Positions 9,224-26,809 of a stretch of DNA of 58,975 nucleotides are shown in pieces. A program made the position numbers and the translations under genes. The notes beneath the pieces are model-generated. The model saw only the letters and a list, made by a program, of their open reading frames with translations, did not search any database and had not been told where the DNA came from. The DNA is from Actinotignum schaalii (GTDB taxonomy: Bacteria > Actinomycetota > Actinomycetes > Actinomycetales > Actinomycetaceae), in the NCBI RefSeq assembly GCF_028864145.1, contig NZ_JARBHJ010000008.1, forward strand, positions 1-58,975, written 5' to 3'. How positions within the stretch are numbered: position 1 is the first letter of the stretch; each line of letters starts with the position of its first letter.

Positions 9224-9226
9224 TGC

Positions 9227-10083: not shown

Positions 10084-10102
10084 TCTGGTTGTTATGTTAT
10101 AG
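10074..10102 (+). promoter_or_regulatory. Promoter of the lacI-type gene
   Basis: TTACGC (10074-10079) and TTATAG (10097-10102) are 17 bases apart, about 45 bases before the ATG at 10148. The -35 box lies inside the operator palindrome. Confidence 0.45.
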
Positions 10103-10147
10103 GCTTGAGGTGTTTCACACAAGACCCTCGTTTACATCAGGAGTCCC

Positions 10148-11437: not shown

Positions 11438-11447
11438 AGAGTTGAAG

Positions 11448-12590: not shown

Positions 12591-13334
12591 CTACTCGCGC
12601 ATCGCTTCCGCAGCGAGTTCGAGGTTGCGAATATATCCTTCCGCGGTCCATGCCGAACGGCCAATAAACAGGCCACCCACGCCCGGGATTCCCAGAATAT
12701 CCTTGTTGTTATCGTGATTGACGGAGCCTCCATAGAGGATGGCCTCCACGCGATCCCCGTAACGCTCCGCGAGCGCGGCAAAGGTACGTACCAGGTCCTC
12801 GCGCCGCGGTGGGCGCCCATGTTCCCCAATTGCCCAGATCGGTTCGTAGGCGAGGAGCACGCGGGAAGTATCCGCTATCCCATCCAGGGCCGCATTAATC
12901 TGCGCGGTGATGAAGGGAAGGGTCTCCCCCGCCTCGAATACCTCGGCCGGCTCGCCGAAGCACACCAGCGGAATAACCCCGTGGCGCAGCGCGGCTTTGA
13001 CCTTGAGATTCACGGTCCGGTCCGTTTCCCCGAAGTATTCGCGCCGCTCGGAATGCCCCATTTCGATGATGGTGGCTCCGGCGTCCATCGCCTGCGGAAT
13101 CGACACTTCGCCCGTCCACGCCCCGGCATCCTCCCAGGCCGCGTTTTGCGCACCCACCAGGATCCCGGTTCCCTCAAGCTCGCTAGCTGCTACATCGATG
13201 GCAGTAAACGAAGGGATAATAAAGGGCTGGATGTCACCGAGGCCAACCGCATCAAGGCCGGCGAGAGTACGGGCGTAGTCCCGCGCGAAAGCGCGAGTGC
13301 CGTTCATTTTCCAGCTGGTTCCAACCCAGAGCAT
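12591..13334 (-). CDS. TIM-like isomerase, probable L-erythrulose-1-phosphate isomerase
   Basis: 247 residues of the triosephosphate isomerase family with all catalytic residues: Asn11 and Lys9 in TSWKMN, His94 in MGHSERR, Glu164 in AYEPIWAIG. The opening WVGTSWKMN, instead of the usual GNWKMN, is what I know from the tetrulose-phosphate isomerases EryH and LerI. Its neighbours (RpiB-like isomerase, DhaKL-type kinase) match the same pathway: this enzyme would convert L-erythrulose-1-P to D-erythrulose-4-P. Its ATG shares one base with the stop codon of the RpiB-like gene (TAATG). A plain glycolytic TIM is unlikely in this context. Confidence 0.8.
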   Translation of the reverse strand: MLWVGTSWKMNGTRAFARDYARTLAGLDAVGLGDIQPFIIPSFTAIDVAASELEGTGILVGAQNAAWEDAGAWTGEVSIPQAMDAGATIIEMGHSERREYFGETDRTVNLKVKAALRHGVIPLVCFGEPAEVFEAGETLPFITAQINAALDGIADTSRVLLAYEPIWAIGEHGRPPRREDLVRTFAALAERYGDRVEAILYGGSVNHDNNKDILGIPGVGGLFIGRSAWTAEGYIRNLELAAEAMRE

Positions 13335-13798
13335 TATTCCTCCAGCGAGCCGTCATAAGCGCAGATCGCATCCACATTGGCCTTGGAATGCGAACTCGGA
13401 TCGAATTCATAATTGAAGAATTCTTTGGCGAGTCGCCGCGCGAGCTCCGCGCCAATCACCCGCTGCCCCAGGCACAGCACCTGCGCATTATTGGACAGCA
13501 CCAGGCGTTCCACCGAGTAGGAATCGTGCGCGGTGGAGGCGCGAATTCCCTTGACCTTATTAGCGGACATCGCCACGCCCATCCCGGTCCCGCATACGAA
13601 AATGCCGCGATCCGCTTCGCCGCGCGCGATCATTTCCGCGCCCGCGGTGGCGAGATTGGGATAAAGCGCGGATTCACCTTCCTTGAGGCCCAGGTCGATC
13701 ACTTCGTCGATGCGCTCGTCTTTTTCCAGGTCAGCCTTGATGAGGTCCTTGTATCCGTACCCGGCCGAATCGCCGAGCACCACCACACGAAATCCCAT
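13334..13798 (-). CDS. RpiB/LacAB-family isomerase, probable D-erythrulose-4-phosphate isomerase
   Basis: 154 residues from the ATG at 13798 (AAGGAG upstream); the longer open frame is non-coding. RpiB hallmarks are present: Cys69 in IFVCGTGMGVAMSANKVKGIRA, His91 in AHDSYSVERLVLSNNA, and a phosphate loop. The usual N-terminal DHAG motif reads DSAG (residues 10-13), a change that fits a substrate other than ribose-5-phosphate. With the adjacent TIM-like enzyme it would make D-erythrose-4-phosphate from D-erythrulose-4-phosphate (EryI/DerI role), which feeds the pentose phosphate pathway. Confidence 0.8.
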   Translation of the reverse strand: MGFRVVVLGDSAGYGYKDLIKADLEKDERIDEVIDLGLKEGESALYPNLATAGAEMIARGEADRGIFVCGTGMGVAMSANKVKGIRASTAHDSYSVERLVLSNNAQVLCLGQRVIGAELARRLAKEFFNYEFDPSSHSKANVDAICAYDGSLEE

Positions 13799-13871
13799 AT
13801 CTACTCCTTTGTTTTCTTTTCTCGACATGTATACGGGTTGGTACGTTCTTGCGAGGTTGCGTGACAGTGAG

Positions 13872-13882
13872 GTGACGGTCAC
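13872..13882. promoter_or_regulatory. Short palindrome GTGAC-G-GTCAC upstream of the RpiB-like gene
   Basis: A perfect 11-bp dyad about 75 bases upstream of the RpiB-like start, in the 182-bp gap after the kinase gene. It could be an operator for a secondary promoter; binding is not shown. Confidence 0.3.
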
Positions 13883-13899
13883 TCATCGCTATTCCACCA

Positions 13900-13970
13900 C
13901 ACGAACCGTGCAAAAAGCCATATTTTGGTGTATTTTCACCGTTTTATTCCACCTTCTTGCGCGGTTCGTG
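13900..13970. repeat. Inverted repeat with 14-base arms in the kinase/RpiB gap
   Basis: CACGAACCGTGCAA (13900-13913) and TTGCGCGGTTCGTG (13957-13970) are reverse complements with one mismatch, 43 bases apart. They may be two operator half-sites or a long stem. The AT-rich DNA between them contains TATTTT-like sequence. Confidence 0.6.
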
Positions 13971-13980
13971 CAGATTGGTC

Positions 13981-15693
13981 TCAGAGCGCCACCGCCGCTG
14001 CAGCCATGAGCAGGGCAAAGGACACCGCGCCCGGATCCGGGTGTCCGAGTGACGCGTCGCCGTGGGTCTTGGCCCGCCCCTTGCGCGCGGCTAGTTCCGC
14101 GGTGGCTTCAGCGGCTTCGCGAGCTACTTCGGCCGCGCGCGTCCAGGCTTCCTTAAGGCCCACACCCCCGGCCAGTTCCTTTTCCAGCGCATCGGCAAAG
14201 GGTTCGGTTGCGTCCACCATCGTTTTATCTCCGACGACGGCGCCACCGTCCCGCGCCACATTCCGCGCCGCATCGATCACGGCTGCGCCCAATGTTTCGG
14301 CCGAAACCGCAGCGTCATCGTCAAGGTGGGTAGCGGCTTGGCAGATAGCATCTCCCCAGAGCGCGCCCGAAGTCCCGCCCGCACCTTCAGACCACGCCTT
14401 ACCGGCCGCGTCTACCATGCTGGCCGCTCCGGCTTTCGCGGAAAGCGCCCGGCGCACCGCATCGCGCGCGGCCACCGAGCCGAGGGTCATGCCCTGACCA
14501 TGGTCGCCATCTCCGGCGATAGAATCCAGCTTGCCCAGATCCGCTTCAGCCGCGATTGCGGCATCGGCGAAAGCGGTGAAAACGGTAGCGATGCGTTCCG
14601 CCTGCGCCGCTGATTCGGGCGCGCCGGCGCTGAGCTCCACTGCGTGTGCTTCAGCAACGGGGCGTTCGCGGCGCTGCTGGTTCTCCACATTTCCGGTACG
14701 GAAAGCGGGGGTATCCGCTCCGGCCAACCAGAACTTCTCCAGCTCTTCATCAAGGAAAGCCACCGTGAGGGAAACCCCGGCCATATCGAGCGAGGTCACC
14801 TGTTCGCCCACGACCGGTGCCACGATCTCCAGGCCGCGCTCGGCAAGGAGTGCGGAAACGGCGTGGTAGAGCACGAACATTTCTTCGTACTTCACTCCGC
14901 CCAGCCCGTTGACGATCACGGTCACGCGCCCGTTATAGCCACCCTCGCGGCGTTCGGGTTCTTCGGCAAGAACACCGTCTACCAGCAGGGCCGCGAGCTC
15001 ATCCGCGGTGGCGTGCTCGTGTTCGGAAATCCCGGGCTCACCGTGAATGCCCAAGCCAAGCGCAAACTTCCCATCCGGCACGGTAAAGAGCGGTTCACCT
15101 GCTCCCGGGAGGGTGCAGCCGGTGAAGGCCACCCCGAGGGTGCGAGTGGAATCATTAGCATGCCAGCCGATGCGTTCAGCTTCGTCCAGGTTGTACCCAG
15201 CAGCAATCGCCCCGCCAGTTACTTTCACGACGAAGATATCGCCCGCGATACCCCGGCGTTCGCGATGTTTTTCTGGGGTTCCCGATGCGACGTCGTCAGA
15301 AATCTGTACTTCGCGCACGTCCAGACCGTCTGCACGCATAATGCTGGCGGCTTTCCCGAAGTGGAGGACGTCCCCGGCGTAATTGCCGTACATGAGAAGC
15401 ACGCCGCCGCCGTTATCAGCAGCCTGGGACACCGCGGTGACCTGGGACTGCGAGGGGGAAGCAAAAACGTTCCCGCATACGCAGCCGTGCGCCATACCTG
15501 GGCCGACCCAGCCGGGGAAAGCCGGGTAGTGCCCCGAACCACCCCCGATCACCAGGGCCACTTCACCCTTCGGGGAGGTAGTAGAACGGACGACACCGCC
15601 GTGCACCCCTTCCACGTACCGCTCATTGGCGGCGATGAAACCCGCGAGGGCTTCAGCGGGGAATTGTTTGGGATCGTTGTAGATAAACGTCAT
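13981..15693 (-). CDS. DhaK-DhaL fusion kinase, probable erythrulose kinase
   Basis: 570 residues: an N-terminal DhaK domain (1-330) with GGGSGHYPAFPGWVG and the substrate-binding histidine in LGIHGEPG (about residue 217), and a C-terminal DhaL ATP domain (about 370-570) with the magnesium aspartates in IAGDGDHGQGM and GGTSGALWG. This ATP-dependent architecture serves as dihydroxyacetone kinase or, in mycobacterial threitol/erythritol and related pathways, as L- or D-erythrulose kinase (LerK/DerK). The two downstream isomerases make L-erythrulose-1-kinase the likeliest role. It starts two bases after the stop of the upstream MFS gene. Plain dihydroxyacetone kinase cannot be excluded. Confidence 0.85.
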   Translation of the reverse strand: MTFIYNDPKQFPAEALAGFIAANERYVEGVHGGVVRSTTSPKGEVALVIGGGSGHYPAFPGWVGPGMAHGCVCGNVFASPSQSQVTAVSQAADNGGGVLLMYGNYAGDVLHFGKAASIMRADGLDVREVQISDDVASGTPEKHRERRGIAGDIFVVKVTGGAIAAGYNLDEAERIGWHANDSTRTLGVAFTGCTLPGAGEPLFTVPDGKFALGLGIHGEPGISEHEHATADELAALLVDGVLAEEPERREGGYNGRVTVIVNGLGGVKYEEMFVLYHAVSALLAERGLEIVAPVVGEQVTSLDMAGVSLTVAFLDEELEKFWLAGADTPAFRTGNVENQQRRERPVAEAHAVELSAGAPESAAQAERIATVFTAFADAAIAAEADLGKLDSIAGDGDHGQGMTLGSVAARDAVRRALSAKAGAASMVDAAGKAWSEGAGGTSGALWGDAICQAATHLDDDAAVSAETLGAAVIDAARNVARDGGAVVGDKTMVDATEPFADALEKELAGGVGLKEAWTRAAEVAREAAEATAELAARKGRAKTHGDASLGHPDPGAVSFALLMAAAAVAL

Positions 15694-15695
15694 TG

Positions 15696-17015
15696 TTACT
15701 CCGTTGGTTGATCTTTGAGGATTGCACTCTGGCGGGCGCGATCCTCAGCGATTTTTGCTCGTACCGCACCGGATAGGCCGAAAGCCATGAGCCCGGCAAC
15801 GGCGACCGATACCCCGAAGAACACCGTGGTAGCGAACATATTTCCGTTCGTGAGATCTTGCAGCCACCCGCCGAGGTACGGGCCGAGCATGCCGCCGAGG
15901 TTCCCGATACCGTTAATGATACCGAAGCCGGCGCCTACCGCTGCCGGGGGTAGCAGCAGGGAGTTGATCGTCCAGTACGGGGCGAAGAAGGAGAGCTGGC
16001 AGGCGGTTGCCGCCGCGAGCGCGACCACCACCAACCACCGCTGGTCCGCCGTCACGAAGGAAGAAAGCGCCAGGATAATACCGCCGAGGATGAGCGGAAT
16101 GCCCACGCGGGTGCAGTAGCGCTGGTCTCGGTCCGCGCCCTTGCCGTTGAACCAGATGGCGATCCCGGCGCAGACGGGCGGGATGGCGGAGACCAAGCCT
16201 ACCGTGAGCGAGCCGTGGAAGGACTGTTTGAGGAGGGTGGGCAGCCAGATCTGTAGCCCGTAGAAGCCCAGCCACACAAACATCCCCAGGAAGGCCAGGT
16301 ACCAGGTGAAGGGATTGCGCACCGCGAGGCGCCAATCCGATTCCACCGGTTTTTCACTACCGTCGATGATTTGCAAGGCGCGGATTTCGTCCTTTTCATC
16401 CTGGTCAATCCATCTGGCGGTATCCGGATTATCGGCGGCGAAGTACCACCACAGCCCCACGCCGATGACCAGCGGCAACGCACCCTGAATAATGAAGAGT
16501 TCACGCCAGTTCCCGTACATGAGGATGAGGCCGGCGAAGGGGCCGGTGATGATCGTGGCGATGGGATTGTGCATGATGAACAGCGAGAAAGCCCGCCCGC
16601 GTTCCGCCTTGGAGAACCACCGGGAAATGAGGACCATGAGTGCTGGCTGCACCCCGCCCTCAAAGACCCCGAGCATAAAGCGTGCGATGAGTAGCTGCGT
16701 ATACGAGTGGACGAAACCGGCCAGAATCGCGCAGACTCCCCACCCGATCATGAGCACAAAGACAACTTTCCGGGCACTCCACTTCTGCGCCAGGTAGCCG
16801 CCCGGAACCTGGAGCACCAGGTACCCGATAAAGAAGATTCCCGCGGCGAATCCGGCCTGGGAAGCATCCATATTGAGACTTTCCCGGATGCCTTCCATGC
16901 CGAAGCCAATATTGACACGGTCGATATACGCGATGATGTAGATCGTGATAATGACGGGAATGAGAATTTTCCAGCGGCGCCGCGCTGACGTGGGAACGTG
17001 GACCGGAGTTGTCAT
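15696..17015 (-). CDS. MFS permease, anion:cation symporter (ACS) type
   Basis: 439 residues and about twelve membrane segments. The N-terminal IIYIIAYIDRVNIGFG and GYLVLQVPGGYLAQKWSARKVV patterns are typical of the ACS family, which imports sugar acids, tartrate, phthalate or similar carboxylates with protons. Its ATG directly follows the stop codon of the cyclase-family gene (TAAATG), so the two are coupled. In this cluster it probably imports the carboxylate or lactone being degraded. Confidence 0.85.
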   Translation of the reverse strand: MTTPVHVPTSARRRWKILIPVIITIYIIAYIDRVNIGFGMEGIRESLNMDASQAGFAAGIFFIGYLVLQVPGGYLAQKWSARKVVFVLMIGWGVCAILAGFVHSYTQLLIARFMLGVFEGGVQPALMVLISRWFSKAERGRAFSLFIMHNPIATIITGPFAGLILMYGNWRELFIIQGALPLVIGVGLWWYFAADNPDTARWIDQDEKDEIRALQIIDGSEKPVESDWRLAVRNPFTWYLAFLGMFVWLGFYGLQIWLPTLLKQSFHGSLTVGLVSAIPPVCAGIAIWFNGKGADRDQRYCTRVGIPLILGGIILALSSFVTADQRWLVVVALAAATACQLSFFAPYWTINSLLLPPAAVGAGFGIINGIGNLGGMLGPYLGGWLQDLTNGNMFATTVFFGVSVAVAGLMAFGLSGAVRAKIAEDRARQSAILKDQPTE

Positions 17016-17723
17016 TTAGGCCTCCTCGGCGATTGTTTCGAGCGCGTAGACACGCGCGGGGCCGCCATCCGCACCCTTGATCTTCAACGGTGCGGCAAAG
17101 AAGAGGAAGCGATCCTGGCTAAGCTGTTCCAGTCCGGCCAGATATTCGATTTGCAGGATTCCCTTGGGGAGCAGCACGGTATGGCAGGCCCAGTCTTCGA
17201 TGGGTTCGTGATGTTCGAAATCTGTGAGGTACGGTTCGCGGATCGCGCGGTCCTGCGGGAAATCAAAAGCGATTGCCTTGGCCTCCAGCTCGAGGAGGTA
17301 TTCCGCGCCGGACTTCGTAATCCACGGGGACATGGTCCAGAATTCTGCTTCGGTTGTGGGGTGGCGCAGTGCCTGGTTGCTGCGGATAAGTACGACGTCG
17401 CCGGCGCGTACCGCGCCGGCCCGGGCCTCAAGAACTTCGCGGGAAAGTGCGGCGTTATCACCCAAATCTGCGACGTCGATCAGGCTTGCTTCCCCGCAGA
17501 AACGTTCGATGGGGAGCATCTCAATGGTTTCTAAGGCCCGATCAACGTGCTGGGGCGCATCGCAATGGGAGAAATTATGGGCACCGTAATCTTTGAGCAC
17601 GGTGGAACGGAAGGTGAATTCCGGTTTCGGAAGTTCCTTGAAGGCGAACTCCGGAGCGAAACGCCAATGCGGCTCAATAAGCATCGACAGGTCGACGACG
17701 CGATAGTGATCGAAAAATCCCAT
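17016..17723 (-). CDS. Cyclase-family hydrolase (kynurenine-formamidase fold)
   Basis: 235 residues from the ATG at 17723; the longer open frame upstream overlaps the amidohydrolase gene and is not coding. It carries the metal-binding motif of the family, here AHNFSHCDAPQHVD (near residues 47-60), plus a late DFPQDRAIR segment and the pattern GDVVLIRSNQA. Family members open amide, lactone or ester-type rings using metal. In this context it may hydrolyse a lactone or related intermediate, but the substrate cannot be read. It starts ten bases after the amidohydrolase stop. Confidence 0.75.
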   Translation of the reverse strand: MGFFDHYRVVDLSMLIEPHWRFAPEFAFKELPKPEFTFRSTVLKDYGAHNFSHCDAPQHVDRALETIEMLPIERFCGEASLIDVADLGDNAALSREVLEARAGAVRAGDVVLIRSNQALRHPTTEAEFWTMSPWITKSGAEYLLELEAKAIAFDFPQDRAIREPYLTDFEHHEPIEDWACHTVLLPKGILQIEYLAGLEQLSQDRFLFFAAPLKIKGADGGPARVYALETIAEEA

Positions 17724-17733
17724 GGTAGTTGTC

Positions 17734-18702
17734 CTATTTTTCGGCGTGCGCGGCGGTGCGCACGGCTTCCGATGTTGTGTTGAGCAGAGCCTGCGGGAGG
17801 CGGTAGATCCGCACCGCGTTCTCTGCGTAGGCGGCTCGTTGTTCCGCCTGGGACCATCCGCTCGTGATCTCACGGAAGCCATTCCAAATATCGGCGAAGC
17901 TTCCGGCGATGGAATCGACCGGGAAATTCGAGGCGAACATAATGCGTTCGGTTCCAAAAATCTCGGTGATTCTTTCCACGATGGGACGATTATTTTCCAC
18001 GGTCCAGGGCTGATCTTTCAGCCCGATTCCGGAAATCTTGATGGAGACCTGCGGATATTGCGCCATGAATTCCAGGGCGCGCGCCCAGCCGGCAATCATA
18101 TCCGGGTGGCGATCCGCGGGGAGCCCGGAGTGGTTAATAATGAGGGGAATATCCGGGTTCTGATCCAGAACGGTTTTCGCCTCGGTCATATGCCACCAGG
18201 CCACTTGCAGGTCGAAACTAAATCCGACGGCGCGCAGCGCGGCGTAGCCCTTCTGCCACTGCGGGTCAGTTAGCAGGCTCGGGTTGCTTTCCGCGCTGGC
18301 CGGCGAATCGGATTGCCCGGGCTTATTACGAACCCCGCGCACAATGGGAATCTCCGCTAATTCTTCGAGAGTACCCTGCACCTGCGGGTCTTTGAGAATC
18401 GCGTGCCCCACCCCGGCGTTGGGGAGGCCGAAGCGATCCGCGATATTTTGGGTGTAGCGCATTTCGCCAACCGGATCATCGAGTTCCCATTCGGTTTCCA
18501 TCGTTACCGAACCGACGAGGTTGAGATTAATACTCGCGGCTAAATCGGTGAGATCCGCCGGCACGAAATCAACTTTGATTGGATCGTAATTTCCGTAGCG
18601 GAAGGGGATATGCGCATCGGGGCGCAACCAGGGTTGGTAACCCAGATGCGGCTCCCAAAAGTGATGATGCGCGTCAATAACTGGACCTGTGTATAACTCC
18701 AT
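17734..18702 (-). CDS. COG3618-type amidohydrolase, probable sugar lactonase
   Basis: 322 residues from the ATG at 18702, which follows AAGGAGG; the longer frame runs into a poly-G/C tract. The opening IDAHHHFWEP (metal HxH), INHSGLP (His) and FASNFPVDS (Asp) are the features of the COG3618 group that includes L-fuconolactonase, L-rhamnonolactonase and PDC hydrolase (LigI). Its place among sugar-acid permeases and tetrulose enzymes favours hydrolysis of a sugar lactone to the acid. Aromatic-pathway pyrone hydrolysis is the alternative, but no oxygenase is present. Cytoplasmic. Confidence 0.8.
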   Translation of the reverse strand: MELYTGPVIDAHHHFWEPHLGYQPWLRPDAHIPFRYGNYDPIKVDFVPADLTDLAASINLNLVGSVTMETEWELDDPVGEMRYTQNIADRFGLPNAGVGHAILKDPQVQGTLEELAEIPIVRGVRNKPGQSDSPASAESNPSLLTDPQWQKGYAALRAVGFSFDLQVAWWHMTEAKTVLDQNPDIPLIINHSGLPADRHPDMIAGWARALEFMAQYPQVSIKISGIGLKDQPWTVENNRPIVERITEIFGTERIMFASNFPVDSIAGSFADIWNGFREITSGWSQAEQRAAYAENAVRIYRLPQALLNTTSEAVRTAAHAEK

Positions 18703-18717
18703 TGTTTCCTCCTTGGT

Positions 18718-18781
<64 letters not shown>

Positions 18782-18815
18782 ACCGCACCCAAAAATTCGT
18801 CGCTACGAGGCGCGC

Positions 18816-20150
18816 TTAGGCGATAAGCCGCCGCTGCGCCAAGGGACGATTGAAATTAATGAGGGCAGAACCGATCATGTACAGTCCTGCCGCGCAGGCG
18901 AGGAATACGAACGCTCCAGTAAAGGAGCCCCCGGCTGCCTTGATCGCGTAGCCCATGATGATGGGAGCAAGCGCACCGCCCAGGGATGAGGCCATGTTCA
19001 TGACAGAACCAACCGTTCCCACCTGGCTCTTCGGGGCGAGCCAAGCCGGAATAGCCCAGTACAGCCCACCGAAGTTCGTGAAGAATACCGCGCCGGAGAG
19101 TAGGAAGAGGGCGGTCATTCCGGAGGGGGCGAAGGGGATAGCTGCCACGCATACCGCCATGCCGAGGGCGGAGCCGACCAGCAGTGCCTTCATAACCTTG
19201 TTGTAATCGTTGAAGGTGCGCCGGCCCCAGTCCGCGAGCCACCCGGCTACCAGCTGGCCCACCACGCCCATCATGAACATGAAGAAGGTGCCCCAGCCTA
19301 GGCCGGCTAAATCGAAATCGCGGGCACGCGAGAGATAGGACGGGGTCCAGGAAATGAGGCCCCACCATACTGTGGCCCAGCCAAGACGCCCGAACCAGAA
19401 GGCCCACCAGGAGGTGGAACGTGCATAGTCAACGATGCGCGGGACCTTGGCCTTTTCTTCTGCGGTGAGTTCGGCCCCTTCCTGACCTACCTCACCTTCG
19501 CGGATGTGTTCGAGTTCTTCCGCGCTCACCCGTGGGTGTTCTTCCGGAGTGTCACGCACCCAGATGTAGTAGATAATCGCAACGATCACCGTGATCCCGC
19601 CGGTTATATAGAAAGCCCAGCGCCAGGACCCGAAGAATCCAATTATTGCGGTGACCATAATGCCACCCACAGCGGAGCCGAAGGCCCCGGCCATATCCAC
19701 GAAAGTGGCGCCGCGGGCACGTTCCCCGGAAGGCAACCAAGAAGAGTTGAGCTTGGAGCCCGAGGGCGCACACGGTGCTTCCAATGCACCGAGGAGCAAG
19801 CGGGATACCCCGAAGCCCAAGCCGGTGTGGATAAAACCAATAACCATCTGGGTTCCGCCCCAAAGTGCTCCGGCCGCACCGATAACGCGGCGTGGCCCGA
19901 ATTTATCGAGGAGCCAACCACCCGGAACCTGGAAGATGAGGTAGGTCCAGAAGAAAGTAGAAAGAATCCATCCCTGCATATCCTCATCGATGCCCAGTTC
20001 CTTATCGATAAAGGGCAGGGCGATGGACAGGGTGGTGCGGTCAATGTAGTTGAGCAGAATAATGAGCCACAAAATCATGAAGACTTCAATGCGAATCTTC
20101 GATTTTTTACCCTTGCGTGGGTGGCTCACTGCGTGCTTATTAACGGACAT
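18816..20150 (-). CDS. MFS permease, ACS type (second)
   Basis: 444 residues, about twelve membrane segments. The N-terminal LNYIDRTTLSIALPFI and the YLIFQVPGGWLLDKFGPRRVIG loop mark the ACS family again (hexuronate/glucarate/phthalate permease relatives), but the sequence differs clearly from the MFS protein at 15696, so it is not a recent duplicate. It begins 14 bases after the PdxA-like gene with a weak ribosome site. Two such permeases plus TctABC in one cluster suggest that more than one acid or lactone enters the pathway. Confidence 0.85.
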   Translation of the reverse strand: MSVNKHAVSHPRKGKKSKIRIEVFMILWLIILLNYIDRTTLSIALPFIDKELGIDEDMQGWILSTFFWTYLIFQVPGGWLLDKFGPRRVIGAAGALWGGTQMVIGFIHTGLGFGVSRLLLGALEAPCAPSGSKLNSSWLPSGERARGATFVDMAGAFGSAVGGIMVTAIIGFFGSWRWAFYITGGITVIVAIIYYIWVRDTPEEHPRVSAEELEHIREGEVGQEGAELTAEEKAKVPRIVDYARSTSWWAFWFGRLGWATVWWGLISWTPSYLSRARDFDLAGLGWGTFFMFMMGVVGQLVAGWLADWGRRTFNDYNKVMKALLVGSALGMAVCVAAIPFAPSGMTALFLLSGAVFFTNFGGLYWAIPAWLAPKSQVGTVGSVMNMASSLGGALAPIIMGYAIKAAGGSFTGAFVFLACAAGLYMIGSALINFNRPLAQRRLIA

Positions 20151-20164
20151 GGTGAACCGGCTTT

Positions 20165-21157
20165 CTATGCCTGGGCCGCTTCTGCGGTCTTGACCCCGAG
20201 GGAAGTAGCAATATCAAAGGCTCGCTGGGAGGGACCGATGGAGGCAATACCCTGGCCCACGATTTCGTAGGCGGTGCCGTGGGCCGGGGTGGCCAACGGC
20301 ACGGGCAAACCTCCCTGAACCGTCACACCCTTATCGAAGCCAATGGTCTTGAGAGCAATCTGGCCCTGATCGTGGTACATCGTGACAACGCCGTCGAAAT
20401 TCCCCTTCTGGGCTCGCATGAAGGTGGTGTCCGGCGGGAAGGGACCCTGCACATTAACACCATCAAACTGGGCGAGTTCCACCCCAGGGGCAATATGGTC
20501 AATTTCTTCCCGGCCGAACTGCCCGGATTCTCCACCGTGCGGGTTGAGCGCGCATACCGCGATACGCGGTTCTTCTACTCCGATGCCCTTAATAACATCG
20601 TTGAGAAGGTTAATGGCATCGCGAACCGCTCGGGCGTTAATACGGGCGGCTACTTGCGAGATTCCACAATGCGAAGTAACGCGCGAAGTGGTGAGCCCGG
20701 GAATGAAATTGAGTTCGGAAGTGAAGCCGTCGTAATTGAGTTCCTTGGCGAACCAACGCAGCTCGTCCTCTTCATGCATGCCGGCTTCGTGGAGCGCGGC
20801 TTTGTTGAGGGGGAGGAAAATAATCGCATCCGCTTTGCCGTCCTTGTACATGCCGATAGCCTTGAGGAGATCGGATTTCACACGCCGACCGCCTTCCACG
20901 GAATGCTCCCCGCGTTTAACGGGCTGATCTTGGAGCTCGGATCCCACGATCTGCACCTCACCGGGCTTTGCTTCTTCCGAATAGGGGAAGCTCAGAGAGA
21001 GCTCCGCGCAGTATTTCTCTACTTCGGAAGCCGATGCAAGCAGCTTAATATTGGCCTTCTGACGGTTCTCCTCATCGGCACATAACTTCATCGCCAGTTC
21101 GGGGCCGATGCCTGAGGGATCACCGATAGTCATAGCAAGATTGGGAACGATAGTCAT
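20165..21157 (-). CDS. PdxA-family beta-hydroxyacid dehydrogenase (decarboxylating)
   Basis: 330 residues with the full PdxA architecture: MTIGDPSGIGPE at the start, LPLNKAALHEAG (116-126), and the three metal histidines His163 (TSHCG), His207 (LNPHGGE) and His262 (YHDQGQ). The family oxidises a beta-hydroxy group next to a carboxylate using NAD(P) and the product decarboxylates. PdxA2 members act on 4-phospho-D-threonate/erythronate, TphB on a diol dicarboxylate. Pyridoxal synthesis is unlikely here. The DUF1537 kinase that partners PdxA2 is absent, so an unphosphorylated sugar acid is a real possibility. AAGGAG precedes the ATG. Confidence 0.85.
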   Translation of the reverse strand: MTIVPNLAMTIGDPSGIGPELAMKLCADEENRQKANIKLLASASEVEKYCAELSLSFPYSEEAKPGEVQIVGSELQDQPVKRGEHSVEGGRRVKSDLLKAIGMYKDGKADAIIFLPLNKAALHEAGMHEEDELRWFAKELNYDGFTSELNFIPGLTTSRVTSHCGISQVAARINARAVRDAINLLNDVIKGIGVEEPRIAVCALNPHGGESGQFGREEIDHIAPGVELAQFDGVNVQGPFPPDTTFMRAQKGNFDGVVTMYHDQGQIALKTIGFDKGVTVQGGLPVPLATPAHGTAYEIVGQGIASIGPSQRAFDIATSLGVKTAEAAQA

Positions 21158-21232
21158 TGTTTTCTCCTTTGTAGCTGTGGTCGCTCGTGCGGCCAGTGAC
21201 GGACGGATAACTGGGGTAAATAGGTTCGGGGA

Positions 21233-22240
21233 TTAGTACGACGGTGCGGGGGCCGACTCACGAGTAATCTGTCCAATGGCACCCTGGCCCGTGGCGGAAA
21301 GATTCGCGTTGAAAGGATCAATGGTGCGCAGTGCGGAGCGCAGTACCTGGCGGATATAGCGGGCATTTGTTGCTCCCACTCCCAGCCAGTCCGAGCCGTA
21401 GTGTTCCACCATGAATGCTCCGGTAAAGCCACCCCGCAAAGCTTGCCGAATCACGGCGCGGTAGTTAATAAGTCCGCTTTCCAGGGGAACCGGCGCGGAC
21501 ATATAGGTGCCAGTTTCCGGGTCCTCATCGCGAATATAGTTCTTGATATGCCAGTAATTGGCGTAGGGAAGAACCGCATCGAACATGTCCTGGTAGCTGG
21601 GCATGGGCCGGTGCAGGCGAATGAGGTTGCCGATATCCGGATTAAGCCCCACGTTGTCACGGTCAATATCACGCACGAAACTCACCGCGCCGTCGTGGGT
21701 TCCCACGTAGGTGTCTTCGTACATTTCCAGGCTGATGTGCATTCCGAGCTGGCCGGCGTGCCGGGCTAGTTCCCGCACCCGTTCCACCGCGAGCGGACGC
21801 AATTGCGGATCGCATACGTGCCCGGGTGCTAGCCAGAACCACAGCGCTTTTTCCTGCGCCGGGGTGAGGGCCTCCATAAAGCCGATATTGATGACCTGTG
21901 CCCCGAGCTCATGCCCGCGGTCAATGAGGTCATGTACGAAGGCAAGATTGGTATCTCCGTTGCGAACATCGACGACGGAACGCCTACCTACGGAAATAGC
22001 GGGAATGCTGAGGTCGAGATCGCGGCACATATCCCGGAAAGACGCGAAGCGTTCCTCGGATATCTCAACAAGGGGAACCCAATCATCCATCGGATCAATG
22101 GCACCGAAACCAAGCTCCTTGACTTGGAGAAGCTGGTCTTCCCATATGCTTACCGGTGCGGTTCCTATATCCTCCCCTGTTTCTGTGCGGGATCCGAAAT
22201 TCATCTTGGCCGCAATTGGCCAGGTATCCGCCGTATACAC
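21233..22240 (-). CDS. TIM-barrel sugar isomerase/epimerase (AP-endonuclease-2 fold)
   Basis: 335 residues from a GTG at 22240 with AAGGAG seven bases upstream. The xylose-isomerase-like barrel is recognisable: a conserved glutamate in HISLEMYEDTYVG, an Asp in VGLNPDIGNLIRLH, His in WHIKNY, and a final Glu-His in AFMVEHYG, which together would bind one divalent metal. Members include isomerases, epimerases, dehydratases and decarboxylases of sugar acids, so the reaction is open. It sits between the tctC and PdxA-like genes, pointing to an early step on the imported acid. Confidence 0.75.
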   Translation of the reverse strand: MYTADTWPIAAKMNFGSRTETGEDIGTAPVSIWEDQLLQVKELGFGAIDPMDDWVPLVEISEERFASFRDMCRDLDLSIPAISVGRRSVVDVRNGDTNLAFVHDLIDRGHELGAQVINIGFMEALTPAQEKALWFWLAPGHVCDPQLRPLAVERVRELARHAGQLGMHISLEMYEDTYVGTHDGAVSFVRDIDRDNVGLNPDIGNLIRLHRPMPSYQDMFDAVLPYANYWHIKNYIRDEDPETGTYMSAPVPLESGLINYRAVIRQALRGGFTGAFMVEHYGSDWLGVGATNARYIRQVLRSALRTIDPFNANLSATGQGAIGQITRESAPAPSY

Positions 22241-22255
22241 CTCATCACTCCTTTC

Positions 22256-22279
22256 GCCGGCCCCGGTTCCGGGGCCGGC
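22256..22279. other. Strong hairpin between tctC and the isomerase gene
   Basis: GCCGGCCCCGG (22256-22266) and CCGGGGCCGGC (22269-22279) form a perfect 11-bp stem. On the minus strand no T-run follows and the next gene's ribosome site comes directly after, so it is more likely an mRNA-stabilising or partial-attenuation element that raises tctC message over downstream genes than a full terminator. Confidence 0.6.
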
Positions 22280-22305
22280 GCTTATCTGCTTATTGCTAGC
22301 GAGCC

Positions 22306-23289
22306 TTAGCTCTGCCCGAGTCCCTTCTTGAGATCTGCTTCGTACCCTTCGAGGTACTTGACGAAATCATCGCCGAAGAGAGGATCGATCTGCATGAAAT
22401 TGGTTTCCATGTAGTTGGTGAAGTCCTTGCTTTCGCTGTACTTCTTTGCTGCATCAATCCAGTACTCGCGGGCTTCTTCGCTGATCCCACCTGTCGCGAT
22501 AAGGCCGCGGAACTGGGAGAAGGTCACGTTAATGCCTTCCTCCACGGTGGTGGGGATATCCTTGAGCGCATCGTAGCTATAGCGATCTTCGGAGATCACG
22601 CACAGGGGAACAAGATCGCCGGCTTCCAGCTGGCCCATCACTTCGCTGGGATTACCCAGGGCGACATCAACGTGTCCGCCGAGCAACGCAGTCACGGCTT
22701 CACCTCCGGATTCGTAGGGCACGCGTTGGAACTGCACACCCTGGTCCTTTTCGATAAGGCCAAATTGGATAGCGTCGTTACCGGTCACACCACCGGATAT
22801 GGAAACCTTGACAGGACCGGCCTTCGCCGCATCCACCACAGCACGGCAGGAATTGTAAGGAGAGCCCTTCTTTACAACCATGATCGTCGAGTCCTGACCC
22901 GCCTTCATGATCGGGGTGAAACTACGCCACGTGAAGGGCACATTTTCGGTGAGAGGAAGGTTTATGAGGGCGGTTTCGGTGGCGAGGAGCTTGGAACTAT
23001 CACCTTCTTCGCCCAGGAACGCAGCATAGCCGACGGCGCCGCCGGCACCCTGGCGATTCTCCACCGAGATGGACTTACCTGTGACGTTCTCCAGGCCGGA
23101 GGCGATGGCACGGCCTGACATATCGGAACCACCACCGGGGGCCATAGGTACCACCATGGTGATACGGGCGCCGGGATCGAAATCGCTTCCTCCCGCGGAG
23201 GAACCCCCGCCCTTATCCTGACAGCCGGAGAGGGCAAGGAGCGCGCAGCTAACAGCGGCGATACCGCTCATGAGTCGTGATATTTTCAT
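22306..23289 (-). CDS. tctC: TctC/Bug-type solute-binding lipoprotein
   Basis: 327 residues with a lipoprotein signal (LLALSGC lipobox, Cys near 22) and the tripartite tricarboxylate transporter binding-protein pattern: ITMVVPMAPGGGSDMSGRAIA, ENRQGAGGAVGYAAF, a PFTWRSFTPI strand and GGHVDVALGNPSEV. It binds the organic acid outside the membrane and presents it to TctAB. TctC proteins as a class prefer carboxylates such as citrate, C4 acids or aromatic acids. It lies two bases downstream of tctA. The hairpin behind it would fit the need for excess binding protein. Confidence 0.9.
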   Translation of the reverse strand: MKISRLMSGIAAVSCALLALSGCQDKGGGSSAGGSDFDPGARITMVVPMAPGGGSDMSGRAIASGLENVTGKSISVENRQGAGGAVGYAAFLGEEGDSSKLLATETALINLPLTENVPFTWRSFTPIMKAGQDSTIMVVKKGSPYNSCRAVVDAAKAGPVKVSISGGVTGNDAIQFGLIEKDQGVQFQRVPYESGGEAVTALLGGHVDVALGNPSEVMGQLEAGDLVPLCVISEDRYSYDALKDIPTTVEEGINVTFSQFRGLIATGGISEEAREYWIDAAKKYSESKDFTNYMETNFMQIDPLFGDDFVKYLEGYEADLKKGLGQS

Positions 23290-23291
23290 TG

Positions 23292-24986
23292 TTATTCCTT
23301 AGAGTTGATCGTCGTTGATCCGGATTGGGGGATGTCACCGCCTAGCGCAAGACCCGGCGGTGGGGTGGTTGTCGTGTCGAGAGCGCGGGTTCCGCGCGCG
23401 GCCGAGCCGGTGCACTCCCCCACGGCAGCAGGTTGCGCAGCATCCACGGACGGCACAGGCTCAATCGCGGAAGTCGCTTCTGCGGGAACTTCGGCCGCCG
23501 CGGATTTGCGGCTGGATTTACGTGAAAAACGCTTGAGGAGGCCCGGGACCACCATGATGGCAAGGGTGATGCCAAGGATGGTCAAGGCTAGGGGCTGACG
23601 GAATACGATGGTGAGATCGCCCTGACTGAAAGCAGAAGTCTGCACCAGATAACGTTCCACCATGGGCCCAAGCACCATGCCCAGGATGAGCGGCGCCGTC
23701 GGATAGTTATATTTCTTGATGAAGAACCCAGCCAAGCCAGCAACGAAAAGAACCGTGAGTGCGAAAACACCATTCTCTACTGCAAATGCCCCAAACATCG
23801 AGAAGAAGATAATGAGGGGATAGAGGTAGGAGTAAGGCAGGCGCAGAACTTGGGCAAAGACGGGTGCCATGGGCAGGTTGAGGACGAGCAGGATAACGTT
23901 CCCGATGAAGAAAGACGTTAGCAAACCCCACACCAACGTAGGTTGATTCTCAAAGAGGAGGGGCCCCGGCTGGATCCCGTACATGACAAATGCGCCGAGG
24001 AGAACTGCCGTCGTCGTACCACCGGGAACGCCCAGCGCGAGAGTCGGAACGAAATTCGCATTGGCCGCGGCGTTATTTGCAGATTCGGAGGCTGCTACGC
24101 CTTCAATAGCGCCCTTACCAAAGTTGCGGGAGTTCTTGGAGACCTGCTTTTCCGCGCCGTAGGCAACCAGGGAGGCAAGAGTGGACCCCGCACCGGGCAG
24201 GCAGCCGAGTACAAATCCAAGCCCGGTACCACGAGTAATGGCCGGAAAAGCCTGCTTAATATCGGAGGGCTTAATGACCATGTCACGCATGCGGGCACGA
24301 ATCGGTTTCGCGGTGCCCGCACCGATCTGGGACACTACTTCACCGATGGCGAATACTCCGATCATAACGACGACGAAATCAATGCCGCCCAGCAAACTCA
24401 CGCTTCCAAAGGTGAAGCGCGAAGCCGCGAAGGCCGAGGACATTCCCACGGTGGAGAGCACTAGGCCAATACCGGCCATCATGAGGCCCTTGGCGAGGTT
24501 ATCGCCGGAGAAGGAGATGATGGTGAGCAGGCCCATGATCATAATGGCGAGCATTTCAGCCGGGCCGAAACGCAGCGCGAATTGAGCAATAGGAGCTGCC
24601 ACCAAGCAGAGCAGAATAAGGGAAACAATGGCGGCGAAGAAGGAGCCGATGGCAGCAATCGCGAGCGCCTTACCAGCTTTTCCTTTTCGGGCTAGAGAGT
24701 AGCCGTCTATAACTGTTGCGACGGCGCTCGCATCTCCCGGAGTGGCAATGAGGACCGCAGCAATCGTGCCGCCGTACTGGCACCCGTAGTAAATACCCGC
24801 GAGCATAATGAGCGCGGTGACCGGTTCCATCGTGAGGGTAAGAGGCAGCAGAATTGCCACGCCCGTGGTGGCCCCCAGTCCGGGGAGCATCCCAATAACG
24901 GTACCGAGAAGTACCCCGATGAAACACCAGAGCAGGTTGTCTGGGGTGAGAGATGTTTGGAAACCGAGTAGAAGATTCTCAATCAT
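23292..24986 (-). CDS. tctA: TctA, large membrane subunit of a tripartite carboxylate transporter
   Basis: 564 residues with many membrane segments and the family signatures GTVIGMLPGLGATTGVAILLPLT near residue 32 and TRGTGLGFVLGCLPGAGSTLASLVAYGAEKQVSK near 250-285. About 60 hydrophilic residues rich in Ala, Pro and Thr follow the last membrane segment, longer than usual. It is the transport channel and is driven by an ion gradient. The order here is tctB-tctA-tctC, with 18 bases between tctB and tctA. Confidence 0.92.
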   Translation of the reverse strand: MIENLLLGFQTSLTPDNLLWCFIGVLLGTVIGMLPGLGATTGVAILLPLTLTMEPVTALIMLAGIYYGCQYGGTIAAVLIATPGDASAVATVIDGYSLARKGKAGKALAIAAIGSFFAAIVSLILLCLVAAPIAQFALRFGPAEMLAIMIMGLLTIISFSGDNLAKGLMMAGIGLVLSTVGMSSAFAASRFTFGSVSLLGGIDFVVVMIGVFAIGEVVSQIGAGTAKPIRARMRDMVIKPSDIKQAFPAITRGTGLGFVLGCLPGAGSTLASLVAYGAEKQVSKNSRNFGKGAIEGVAASESANNAAANANFVPTLALGVPGGTTTAVLLGAFVMYGIQPGPLLFENQPTLVWGLLTSFFIGNVILLVLNLPMAPVFAQVLRLPYSYLYPLIIFFSMFGAFAVENGVFALTVLFVAGLAGFFIKKYNYPTAPLILGMVLGPMVERYLVQTSAFSQGDLTIVFRQPLALTILGITLAIMVVPGLLKRFSRKSSRKSAAAEVPAEATSAIEPVPSVDAAQPAAVGECTGSAARGTRALDTTTTPPPGLALGGDIPQSGSTTINSKE

Positions 24987-25004
24987 GATATGTTCGTTCC
25001 TCCC

Positions 25005-25655
25005 TTACACCAGGTCAAGCATCCCGGTAGGAAGCGGCACTTGGAGAAGCACAGAGAAAACCACGTAGCCGAAGAGGAAGGTGAGAATAGCAGCGAGGAG
25101 CCCCTGCCACCATTTGCGCCGTTCCACGAAAACAACGAGGACAAAGACCATGAGCGTGACGGAAAACAGCAGGCCGATCACGCGGGTGAGGATAATTGCG
25201 CCAAGCATTGCGAGGAAGACGTAGACTACCGCGAGCTGACGCTGGCGTTCGGTGCGTTCACCTTCCGCGGGCGTTTCTTCTGCCGCATACTGTTCCATCA
25301 GCTGGACGGATTCGTCATCTTCTGAGTCAGTTTCCGGCGCGGGCTTCGTGATGTTGGAGCGAATGAGATCCCAAATCGAGGCGAGGACAATAACGCAACC
25401 GGCGACGAAAGGCATGAGCCCGGCACCAACTTCGCCATTGGTTTCTGATAGTCCGTAATTCCATCCCGACACAATGACGTAGATGCCGATACCTAAAATA
25501 ACGAGGCGGAAAGCCAGTGCGCCGATATCCCGATTTCCGCACTGGCGTTGGGCTTGTGCCGGCGCGCTTGTGGTGGCACCCGTGGTGTTCGGAGAAACCG
25601 CGCCGGGTGGGTGCATCCCAGGGTCTCCATCGGTCTTCACCGTTGTACTCCTCAT
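25005..25655 (-). CDS. tctB: TctB, small membrane subunit of the carboxylate transporter
   Basis: 216 residues. About 45 hydrophilic residues precede four hydrophobic segments, with the family-like YVIVSGWNYG...GAGLMPFVAGCVIVLASI motif and a long acidic loop (TDSEDDESVQLMEQY). The start ATG at 25655 is taken as given: a CGATGAGGAG sequence lies close upstream. It is the first gene of the catabolic operon; the promoter and a perfect palindrome lie about 100 bases upstream. Confidence 0.85.
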   Translation of the reverse strand: MRSTTVKTDGDPGMHPPGAVSPNTTGATTSAPAQAQRQCGNRDIGALAFRLVILGIGIYVIVSGWNYGLSETNGEVGAGLMPFVAGCVIVLASIWDLIRSNITKPAPETDSEDDESVQLMEQYAAEETPAEGERTERQRQLAVVYVFLAMLGAIILTRVIGLLFSVTLMVFVLVVFVERRKWWQGLLAAILTFLFGYVVFSVLLQVPLPTGMLDLV

Positions 25656-25754
25656 CGAGCAACCTTTCCTTCTGGTAGTGCACTTCTGTGGTAGGGATGA
25701 CGTTTCTGCTTTGAAACCGACATCGACAGTGACGCGCGCTACTAAGTTTCCAAT

Positions 25755-25773
25755 ATCCTATATCGTATAGGAT
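25755..25773. promoter_or_regulatory. Perfect palindrome, likely GntR/FCD operator
   Basis: ATCCTATATCGTATAGGAT is a perfect inverted repeat with 8-base arms and a TCG centre. It covers the spacer and -10 box of the tctB promoter, so a bound protein would block the catabolic operon. The GntR/FCD regulator encoded at 26114-26809 is the obvious candidate. Confidence 0.65.
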
Positions 25774-25783
25774 TCTGTGACAA
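25755..25783 (-). promoter_or_regulatory. Promoter of the tctB-led catabolic operon
   Basis: On the minus strand TTGTCA (25783-25778) and TAGGAT (25760-25755) are separated by 17 bases, about 100 bases upstream of the tctB ATG. The operator palindrome overlaps it. Confidence 0.55.
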
Positions 25784-25865
25784 GGGTCGCGCGGTACTGT
25801 GACATGCCGAAGCTACACAAAAGCGAGACGTTCTCAGCCGTCACACCGATGCCGAAGGAGGAGCG

Positions 25866-26105
25866 ATGGGGCAGATTCTCATCACGGTCGGGATTGTTAT
25901 CTACCTAGGTGTCGCGGTGCTCTGGGCTATTAACCTGGTACGCGGATTGCGCCACGCAGCAAAGGATCCCCACTCGCAGCTGGATCGGGGCGCACGGCGA
26001 ACCACCTACTTCGCCTTAGCTACTTGCTGGGCTTGGCCTGCGTGGATCTTTATCAGCCTCGCGCTTGCCGCGCGGCGCATTCGCCAAGCCGGCCGTGGAT
26101 GCTAA
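25866..26105 (+). CDS. Small two-helix membrane protein, unknown
   Basis: 79 residues from an ATG with a strong GAAGGAGGAG ribosome site. Two hydrophobic segments (about residues 5-27 and 47-70) flank a basic, hydrophilic loop. I recognise no family. It is divergent from the tct operon across the GntR-type operator and convergent with the regulator gene, so it may be co-regulated with the transporter; a role as an accessory subunit is only a guess. Confidence 0.6.
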   Translation: MGQILITVGIVIYLGVAVLWAINLVRGLRHAAKDPHSQLDRGARRTTYFALATCWAWPAWIFISLALAARRIRQAGRGC

Positions 26106-26113
26106 TAAACGAT

Positions 26114-26809
26114 TTATTCCGCGTCAGAAATTGATCGGCGCAGCACCCCGTTGAGATGGGCTTCCATAGCAGCTAGTGCATCCTCGCGCGCACCCGAGGC
26201 GAAAGCCTCCAAAATAGCATGATGCTCCGCAGTGGCCTGCGCACCGTCAGAACTTCCTTCCCCAACGGTTTGGCGAATGCGGTGAGCCTGGAAAGCGAGG
26301 TTATCCACCGCCGATTCCAGGTATGAATTATTGGCGTAGCGAATAATAACGCGGTGGAAGTTCCAATCAGCATCGAAATAGTGGCGGATATGGGCGAGGT
26401 CAAGGTGCCCTTTTTCATGTTCGAGATTCTGCCACGCGACTTCGTGTTCGGCGTGGGCCTGGCGCAATTCCGGAAGAAGTCGCTTGGCGTGCGGATAAGC
26501 CCAGTCAACCGCCTGGAGTTCCAGAAGCTTACGGACATCAATGAGTTTGCGAATTTGCTCGGTAGAGATGGGGGGCGCCACCCGGTAGCCGCGCCGAGCT
26601 AGACGCTCCACCAAGCCAGTATGCTCCATTTCCACCATGGCTTCGCGTACCGGGGTAGGAGAGACATCGAGATCACGAGCCAGGCCGTCAATGCTCAAAG
26701 ATTCTTCCGGCTGGAACACGCCGCCCAGCAGCATATCGAGTATGGTGGAATACACCTCGTCACGCAAAGCAGCACGACGACGCTTAAGCAGAGAACCGGT
26801 GACGGCCAC
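26114..26809 (-). CDS. GntR-family regulator with FCD domain
   Basis: 231 residues from a GTG at 26809, chosen because AAGGAG lies five bases upstream; the longer frame to 26872 lacks one. The winged helix (RDEVYSTILDMLLGG, then GLARDLDVSPTPVREAMVEMEHTGLVERLARRGYRV) is followed by an all-helical FCD effector domain with metal-type histidines (DADWNFHRVI, AEHHAILEAF). FCD regulators typically sense carboxylates or sugar acids and release DNA on binding. The palindrome at 25755 in the tctB promoter is its likely target. It stands at the promoter end of the 13-26 kb cluster. Confidence 0.9.
   Translation of the reverse strand: MAVTGSLLKRRRAALRDEVYSTILDMLLGGVFQPEESLSIDGLARDLDVSPTPVREAMVEMEHTGLVERLARRGYRVAPPISTEQIRKLIDVRKLLELQAVDWAYPHAKRLLPELRQAHAEHEVAWQNLEHEKGHLDLAHIRHYFDADWNFHRVIIRYANNSYLESAVDNLAFQAHRIRQTVGEGSSDGAQATAEHHAILEAFASGAREDALAAMEAHLNGVLRRSISDAE

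What the first reader, a model, noticed from the sequence alone, without database searches (positions are those of the whole stretch)
12591..26809. Cluster that seems to degrade a sugar acid or lactone through L-erythrulose
Seen: one strand carries TctABC, a TIM-barrel isomerase, a PdxA-like dehydrogenase, two ACS permeases, a COG3618 lactonase-like enzyme, a cyclase-family hydrolase, a DhaKL kinase, an RpiB-like and a TIM-like isomerase, with a GntR/FCD regulator. Known: the last three enzyme types carry L-erythrulose to D-erythrose-4-P in erythritol/threitol and apionate pathways. All three would be needed only for L-erythrulose (D-erythrulose needs no TIM-like step). Inference: the upper part makes L-erythrulose from a C5 (or branched C5) acid. 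I know no described pathway with this exact set.
Basis: partly seen in the sequence, partly recalled or inferred. Interest (0 to 1): 0.78.

Follow-up and report, generated by a model that had tools for sequence, protein, structure and literature searches.

The report
Sugar-acid pathway through L-erythrulose
A bacterium of the genus Actinotignum carries a gene set that probably breaks a sugar acid, perhaps one left over from vitamin C, down to the four-carbon sugar L-erythrulose and on into central metabolism, with an enzyme family of unassigned function that probably removes carbon dioxide.

Summary
The cluster is real (window 12591-26809, minus strand; Actinotignum, nearest A. sanguinis). Its last three enzymes fit the L-erythrulose route (LerK, LerI, DerI): TIM and RpiB are second copies beside housekeeping ones, and the TIM is 47-48% identical to TIMs of erythritol- and apionate-type loci but 32% to its own TIM. 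The upper part is probably not the apionate route: no ApnO match in the genome, and the TIM-barrel protein (APEND) is not the OiaC-type protein, though distantly homologous. In 88 APEND neighbourhoods PdxA (20) and 3HCDH/SDR dehydrogenases (65) are together in only 4. The PdxA-like enzyme has lost residues that bind phosphate in true PdxA (roles recalled). A palindrome, ATCCTATAGGAT, stands before APEND, PdxA, DhaKL, cyclase and dehydrogenase genes of relatives. Inferred: acid -> 3-oxo acid (PdxA) -> L-erythrulose + CO2 (APEND) -> erythrose-4-phosphate. Amidohydrolase and PdxA recall a known L-ascorbate pathway, so vitamin C breakdown lactones are the boldest substrate guess (0.3). No substrate is shown.

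The parts
26114..26809 (-). GntR/FCD regulator
   Evidence: Pfam FCD 2.1e-18 and GntR 3e-12; a homologue is found in 46 of 88 APEND neighbourhoods, window included
25756..25772 (.). candidate operator TCCTATATCGTATAGGA upstream of tctB
   Evidence: perfect inverted repeat, only site with up to 2 mismatches in the window; related sites stand before cluster genes of relatives
25005..25655 (-). TctB
   Evidence: Pfam 1.1e-20
23292..24986 (-). TctA
   Evidence: Pfam 2.8e-152
22306..23289 (-). TctC solute-binding protein
   Evidence: Pfam 1.3e-29
21233..22240 (-). APEND: xylose-isomerase-like TIM barrel, proposed 3-oxo-L-sugar-acid decarboxylase making L-erythrulose
   Evidence: Pfam 7.7e-26; PDB 5tnv_A E 1e-118, no function in its name; profile match to the OiaC-type family E 9.5e-11
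20165..21157 (-). PdxA-like enzyme, proposed NAD-dependent oxidative decarboxylase or dehydrogenase of an unphosphorylated acid
   Evidence: Pfam 4.1e-77; E. coli positions H136, T137, N283, R292 read E, L, T, L here
18816..20150 (-). MFS transporter 2 (ACS-like)
   Evidence: Pfam; 41-42% homologues beside PdxA and amidohydrolase in Caballeronia SBC2 and M. nodulans
17734..18702 (-). Amidohydro_2 lactonase-like hydrolase (start by homology)
   Evidence: Pfam 1.3e-36; alignment A2
17016..17723 (-). cyclase-family hydrolase PF04199 (start by homology)
   Evidence: Pfam 5.2e-16; 39% to the cyclase of the Chelatococcus PdxA/Tct/amidohydrolase locus
15696..17015 (-). MFS transporter 1 (ACS-like)
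   Evidence: Pfam 1.6e-62; 80% in A. massiliense beside the cyclase
13981..15693 (-). DhaKL kinase, proposed L-erythrulose 1-kinase (LerK)
   Evidence: Pfam Dak1 and Dak2; only Dak1 match in the genome
13334..13798 (-). RpiB paralogue, proposed DerI (start by homology)
   Evidence: second RpiB beside C17 copy; 31% to that copy, 45-47% to RpiBs of erythritol/apionate-type loci
12591..13334 (-). TIM paralogue, proposed LerI
   Evidence: second TIM beside C27 copy; 32% to that copy, 47-48% to TIMs of erythritol/apionate-type loci

Best explanation
A catabolic operon under a GntR/FCD regulator. Acid and lactone forms of an L-configured sugar acid are imported by TctABC and two MFS carriers; the amidohydrolase and the cyclase-family hydrolase open lactones; the PdxA-like enzyme oxidises the C3 hydroxyl with NAD+ (losing one CO2 if the substrate is a 2-carboxy pentonate); APEND decarboxylates the 3-oxo acid to L-erythrulose; DhaKL, the TIM paralogue and the RpiB paralogue turn it into L-erythrulose-1-P, D-erythrulose-4-P and D-erythrose-4-P. 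Shown: gene content, paralogy, residue changes, neighbourhood pattern, shared palindrome. Inferred: every reaction and the substrate.
For: Second TIM and RpiB copies, close to erythritol/apionate-type loci. Around APEND, at least one of DhaKL, TIM, RpiB is found in 58 of 67 neighbourhoods of 20 kb or more and all three in 31. PdxA in 20, 3HCDH/SDR in 65, both in 4, neither in 7 of 88 (Fisher 5.5e-9, not corrected for kinship), so they look interchangeable. All 30 PdxA-like rows (window plus 29) have Glu136, Thr283 and no Arg292, while metal His166/211/266 are kept. APEND matches the OiaC-type profile E 9.5e-11 over the LE-x-YE, H-x-K and EH motifs. Palindrome half-sites upstream of APEND in 44 of 87 loci, 45 times denser than elsewhere. 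Atom balance by hand: C6H10O8 - 2 CO2 - 2H, or C5H10O6 - CO2 - 2H, gives C4H8O4.
Against: No activity is known for any member. The RpiB passes the actinobacterial ribose-5-P isomerase model (171.6, cut-off 168.2) and not the DerI model (150.4, cut-off 240); the TIM passes a triose-phosphate isomerase model (311.4, cut-off 293). TIMs of some APEND loci belong to another group (35-38%: L029, L030, L145, L146). Four neighbourhoods have both PdxA and 3HCDH/SDR, so the enzymes could act in series. The single-sequence link of APEND to OiaC (4.4e-6) is only modestly better than to two other TIM barrels (1.4e-4, 4.3e-5). Amidohydrolase relatives in alphaproteobacteria lie beside LtnD-like dehydrogenases more often than PdxA (6 and 1 of 12 places).
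Confidence: 0.55

Rival explanations
1. Apionate pathway: APEND is an OiaC-type 3-oxo-isoapionate decarboxylase and apionate or apionolactone is the substrate.
For: Same lower part; APEND is a distant relative of the OiaC-type family; eight of 88 APEND neighbourhoods also hold ApnO-like and OiaC-like genes.
Against: No ApnO-like match in the genome (the tool warns that an empty answer is weak). In Erwinia E602 and eight APEND loci the ApnO-like gene is paired with another TIM-barrel protein, so APEND is an extra enzyme there. PdxA has no role in that route as I recall it.
Confidence: 0.12
2. C4 acid route: a tetronate such as L-threonate is oxidised at C3 and decarboxylated to dihydroxyacetone, which DhaKL phosphorylates.
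For: DhaKL is a dihydroxyacetone-kinase-family protein and the only Dak1 protein in the genome; curated models call the isomerases TIM and ribose-P isomerase.
Against: It needs neither a second TIM of the erythritol-locus type nor an RpiB, yet both recur beside APEND (46 and 53 of 88).
Confidence: 0.12
3. PdxA-like enzyme makes L-lyxonate without net redox, as in the L-ascorbate pathway, and L-lyxonate leaves by a dehydratase elsewhere; APEND and the L-erythrulose enzymes serve another substrate.
For: PdxA relatives sit beside enolase-family dehydratases in Ruegeria, Cupriavidus and Caballeronia; three enolase-family matches of 30-34% exist in the genome, one in two pieces.
Against: PdxA lies directly beside APEND here, and PdxA and APEND promoters share the palindrome in other genomes.
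Confidence: 0.12
4. Several unrelated transport and hydrolase genes joined by chance to a tetrulose module.
For: Amidohydrolase is found in only 3 and cyclase in 4 of 88 APEND neighbourhoods.
Against: In two other Actinomycetaceae genomes the DhaKL, RpiB, TIM, cyclase, MFS1 and amidohydrolase genes form a second locus beside the APEND-PdxA locus, with the palindrome before DhaKL; cyclase, PdxA, Tct and amidohydrolase also occur together in Chelatococcus and Ponticoccus.
Confidence: 0.06

Closest known systems
Tetritol (erythritol/threitol) catabolism, L-erythrulose branch: LerK, LerI, DerI
   Same: Kinase family and two isomerase families; TIM and RpiB copies close to those of such loci. Steps LerI and DerI to erythrose-4-P as stated in passages of PMC10733421.
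   Different: No tetritol dehydrogenase or FGGY kinase beside it; the entry is by acid transporters, hydrolases, PdxA and APEND.
D-apionate pathway with ApnO, OiaC and L-erythrulose (Carter 2018, recalled; not held)
   Same: L-erythrulose lower part; a distantly related TIM-barrel enzyme.
   Different: No ApnO match; APEND is a separate family present alongside the OiaC-type gene in eight loci.
L-ascorbate pathway of Ralstonia eutropha (Stack 2020, abstract recalled; only its reference entry seen)
   Same: PdxA-family and amidohydrolase-family enzymes; PdxA subfamily shared with dehydratase-linked loci.
   Different: No match to the Ruegeria propeller-like protein in the genome; lower part runs through L-erythrulose, not 2-oxoglutarate; APEND is added.
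PDB 5tnv_A, 'AP endonuclease, family protein 2' (Mycobacterium smegmatis by recall)
   Same: APEND family, E 1e-118 over residues 1-304.
   Different: No function in the entry name; no paper found with this code.

Membership tests
LerK/LerI/DerI module | TIM-like and RpiB-like enzymes distinct from the housekeeping copies | tested here: met
   two TIM and two RpiB matches in the genome; identities
LerK/LerI/DerI module | RpiB passes the curated DerI model NF051858 | tested here: not met
   150.4 bits, cut-off 240; the model name points to rhizobial members
LerK/LerI/DerI module | activity on L-erythrulose and its phosphates | not testable with these tools
   needs enzymes
Apionate pathway with OiaC | ApnO present | tested here: not met
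   no match at E 0.001 in the genome
Apionate pathway with OiaC | TIM-barrel protein of the OiaC-type family | tested here: not met
   only distant profile similarity, 18% over 227 columns; separate ORF clusters
True PdxA (4-hydroxythreonine-4-phosphate dehydrogenase) | phosphate/substrate residues H136, T137, N283, R292 (roles recalled) | tested here: not met
   E, L, T, L in the window; metal His166/211/266 kept; the genome's other PdxA keeps T137 and R292 but also has T283
L-ascorbate pathway (Stack 2020) | propeller-like rearrangement enzyme | tested here: inconclusive
   no match to the Ruegeria protein, whose own propeller hits are below cut-off
L-ascorbate pathway (Stack 2020) | cytochrome b561 and gluconolactonase | not tested
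   own genome not searched for them
L-ascorbate pathway (Stack 2020) | L-lyxonate dehydratase | tested here: inconclusive
   enolase-family matches of 30-34%, far below the 65% between Ruegeria and Caballeronia/Cupriavidus

The most novel reading that the evidence does not exclude
The operon salvages vitamin C breakdown products. [quoted passage not shown] The PdxA-like enzyme oxidises and decarboxylates it to a 3-oxo-L-pentonate, and APEND, a new sugar-acid decarboxylase family, gives L-erythrulose. Other genomes feed the same decarboxylase from L-pentonates through a 3HCDH or SDR dehydrogenase.
Probability: 0.3. Interest if true: 0.8.

Novelty: new variant of a known kind. Interest (0 to 1): 0.6.

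Why it matters
It would give a function to a recurrent TIM-barrel family (at least 533 confirmed matches among genome contigs, with a solved structure of unassigned function) and show that L-erythrulose is a meeting point of several sugar-acid pathways. If the vitamin C reading holds, it would show how a bacterium known from human urine could live on excreted ascorbate breakdown products.

Tried and rejected
Apionate reading of APEND: rejected as the first choice because the OiaC-type protein is a different family paired with ApnO-like genes. OiaC as a simple isomerase relative of APEND was controlled with two other TIM barrels; the margin is modest. The first ORF layout hid the cyclase homology between the window and Chelatococcus; a direct look showed 39%. 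Literature: no paper with the set of terms, with S. meliloti gene names that I guessed or with 5TNV; Actinotignum plus ascorbate gave one unrelated paper. No structure model was made. The palindrome was chosen after seeing the sites; of 20 permuted motifs 18 gave 0-2 loci but two gave 15 and 22. Score thresholds for neighbourhood counts were set by me. The 80 contig loci are the best of 533 and were seeded by APEND, so they lean to near relatives. Cytochrome b561 and gluconolactonase were not sought in the genome.

Papers: passages only of PMC10444878, PMC11066805, PMC5398285, PMC6225978, PMC10537655, PMC10733421, PMC3599248 and PMC11276620; PMC8004716 in a search listing only; Stack 2020 and Carter 2018 recalled.
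Full report
What is there. Probable order of transcription: GntR/FCD regulator; candidate operator; tctB, tctA, tctC; a xylose-isomerase-like TIM barrel protein, here called APEND; a PdxA-like gene; MFS2; amidohydrolase; cyclase-family hydrolase; MFS1; DhaKL; RpiB; TIM. The APEND protein is 99% identical to that of Actinotignum sanguinis DSM 26039 and 96% to A. timonense, so the window is from this genus. The genome G000 has 2.2 Mb in 77 contigs.

Lower part. The genome has one further TIM and one further RpiB and no other Dak1 protein. The window TIM is 31.7% identical to the housekeeping TIM but 47-48% to TIMs next to RpiB in S. meliloti and Roseibium loci of erythritol type, in a Rhizobium gallicum locus and in a Rhizobium locus with a gene annotated oiaX. 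At loop 6 it reads AIGEHG where the housekeeping copy reads AIGTG. The RpiB behaves alike: 31% to the housekeeping copy, 45-47% to those loci, 56-61% to other APEND neighbourhoods. LerI and DerI as the route from L-erythrulose-1-P to erythrose-4-P are described in passages of PMC10733421; passages of PMC3599248 describe an eryR-tpiB-rpiB unit, but in that older text the end product of erythritol is given as dihydroxyacetone phosphate. Against: the TIM and RpiB pass models named triose-phosphate and ribose-5-phosphate isomerase and the DerI model is not passed; and TIMs of some APEND loci are of another group (35-38%).

Neighbourhoods of APEND. The contig scan confirmed 533 relatives and kept the best 80; with seven further loci and the window this gave 88 neighbourhoods. 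By my score thresholds DhaKL is found in 69, RpiB in 53, TIM in 46, the GntR regulator in 46, a 3HCDH-family dehydrogenase in 52, an SDR in 31, PdxA in 20, TctC in 19, GntP in 28. The dehydrogenase pattern is: 3HCDH only 33, 3HCDH and SDR 18, SDR only 10, PdxA only 16, PdxA and SDR 3, PdxA and 3HCDH 1, none 7. A Fisher test gives 5.5e-9 without correction for kinship. Among 43 genera or single genomes, PdxA-only occurs in 10, 3HCDH/SDR-only in 28, both in 4, none in 7, a genus counting in more than one class if mixed. I read this as interchangeable oxidation of the same or like C3 hydroxyl, with APEND acting after it. The genome had no match to the 3HCDH query and only ordinary SDRs of at most 31%.

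APEND is not the apionate decarboxylase. In Erwinia E602 a MFS, DhaKL, TIM, TIM-barrel and ApnO-like run stands beside RpiB; the OiaC-type TIM-barrel there is 44-50% identical to the TIM-barrel proteins paired with ApnO-like genes in eight APEND loci, six of which were aligned with it. The ApnO-like proteins are 33-36% identical to the one in the oiaX-annotated Rhizobium locus. The names ApnO and OiaC rest on my recall of Carter 2018. APEND and the OiaC-type family align over 227 columns with E 9.5e-11 and share LE-x-YE, H-x-K and EH motifs. With single sequences as targets the OiaC-type protein gives 4.4e-6 and two other TIM barrels 1.4e-4 and 4.3e-5, without covering those motifs. A decarboxylase yielding L-erythrulose is therefore the likeliest role.

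PdxA. In all 30 PdxA-like rows (window and 29 from context loci, near copies included) the residues at E. coli positions 136, 283 and 292 are Glu, Thr and Leu/Ile/Val instead of His, Asn and Arg, with the metal histidines, Asp247 and Lys274 kept; the genome's other PdxA keeps Thr137 and Arg292 though it too has Thr283. The roles of these positions are recalled. An unphosphorylated substrate follows, which suits the absence of an upstream kinase. In the tree the actinobacterial APEND-linked PdxAs form one clade (100/99); a Pantoea PdxA joins it with weak support (85/77); the dehydratase-linked ones are not one clade.

Link to ascorbate chemistry. A Ruegeria locus with this PdxA subfamily holds an enolase-family dehydratase, a DHDPS-like protein, an aldehyde dehydrogenase, an SMP-30 protein and a hypothetical protein with sub-threshold propeller hits, much like the L-ascorbate pathway of Stack 2020 as I recall its abstract. 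Caballeronia SBC2 has dehydratase, MFS2-like, PdxA and amidohydrolase in a row; Methylobacterium nodulans has MFS2-like, amidohydrolase and PdxA. Chelatococcus and Ponticoccus have PdxA, TctCBA, amidohydrolase and a homologous cyclase. Against: no amidohydrolase match in the Ruegeria megaplasmid or the Cupriavidus record (their other replicons not searched), and of 12 alphaproteobacterial places looked at, out of 24 found in 18 of 289 genomes, PdxA is near in 1 and an LtnD-like dehydrogenase in 6. Passages in PMC6225978 and PMC5398285 describe 2-carboxy-L-xylonolactone and -lyxonolactone as breakdown products of diketogulonate that open to one acid; PMC11276620 names L-xylonate, L-lyxonate and L-erythrulose among vitamin C products; PMC10537655 lists lyxonate in infant urine. 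This is the basis of the novel case.

Regulon. An inverted repeat stands 100 bp before tctB. Sites like it occur upstream of APEND in 44 of 87 loci: 36 of 45 with the GntR homologue, 8 of 42 without; 53 sites in 32,558 bp against 59 in 1,638,334 bp elsewhere. Among the 13 loci laid out gene by gene they also precede PdxA (L070, L075, L086, L096), cyclase (L033), 3HCDH (L066, L080), GntR (L066, L075, L086) and DhaKL (L034, L066, L070, L080, L145, L146). L145 and L146 are second loci of the genomes of L087 and L039 and hold DhaKL, RpiB, TIM, cyclase, MFS1 and amidohydrolase. Two of 20 permuted motifs also hit 15 and 22 loci, the other 18 at most 2; the motif was picked after inspection.

Judgement. 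A sugar-acid route through L-erythrulose is about 0.8 likely in my view; the step order with APEND as decarboxylase 0.55; vitamin C lactones as substrate 0.3. Nothing here is biochemical proof.

Noticed in passing
window 39626-58847: Low-GC (about 0.50-0.52) plus-strand stretch with two FGGY kinases, sugar ABC ATPases, a GlcNAc 2-epimerase-like protein and another AP_endonuc_2 protein: a second sugar-utilisation island.
   Followed up: no
window 7020-11185: Phosphotriesterase-family protein, YdcZ-type transporter and GATase1-like protein with a divergent LacI regulator: a small operon of unknown substrate.
   Followed up: no
window 11427-12473: RhuM-family protein just downstream of the cluster.
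   Followed up: no
L034, L036, L055, L068, L076, L080, L083, L086: ApnO-like and OiaC-like genes beside the APEND cluster: an apionate branch seems to share the L-erythrulose genes in these genomes.
   Followed up: partly
L097, L086, L055, L080: 2-hydroxyacid dehydrogenase and LldD-type flavoprotein genes near APEND, perhaps to change the C2 configuration of the acid.
   Followed up: no
window about 18703-18792: Upstream of the amidohydrolase start the reading frame is a run of glycine and proline codons, i.e. a G/C-homopolymer-like tract.
   Followed up: no
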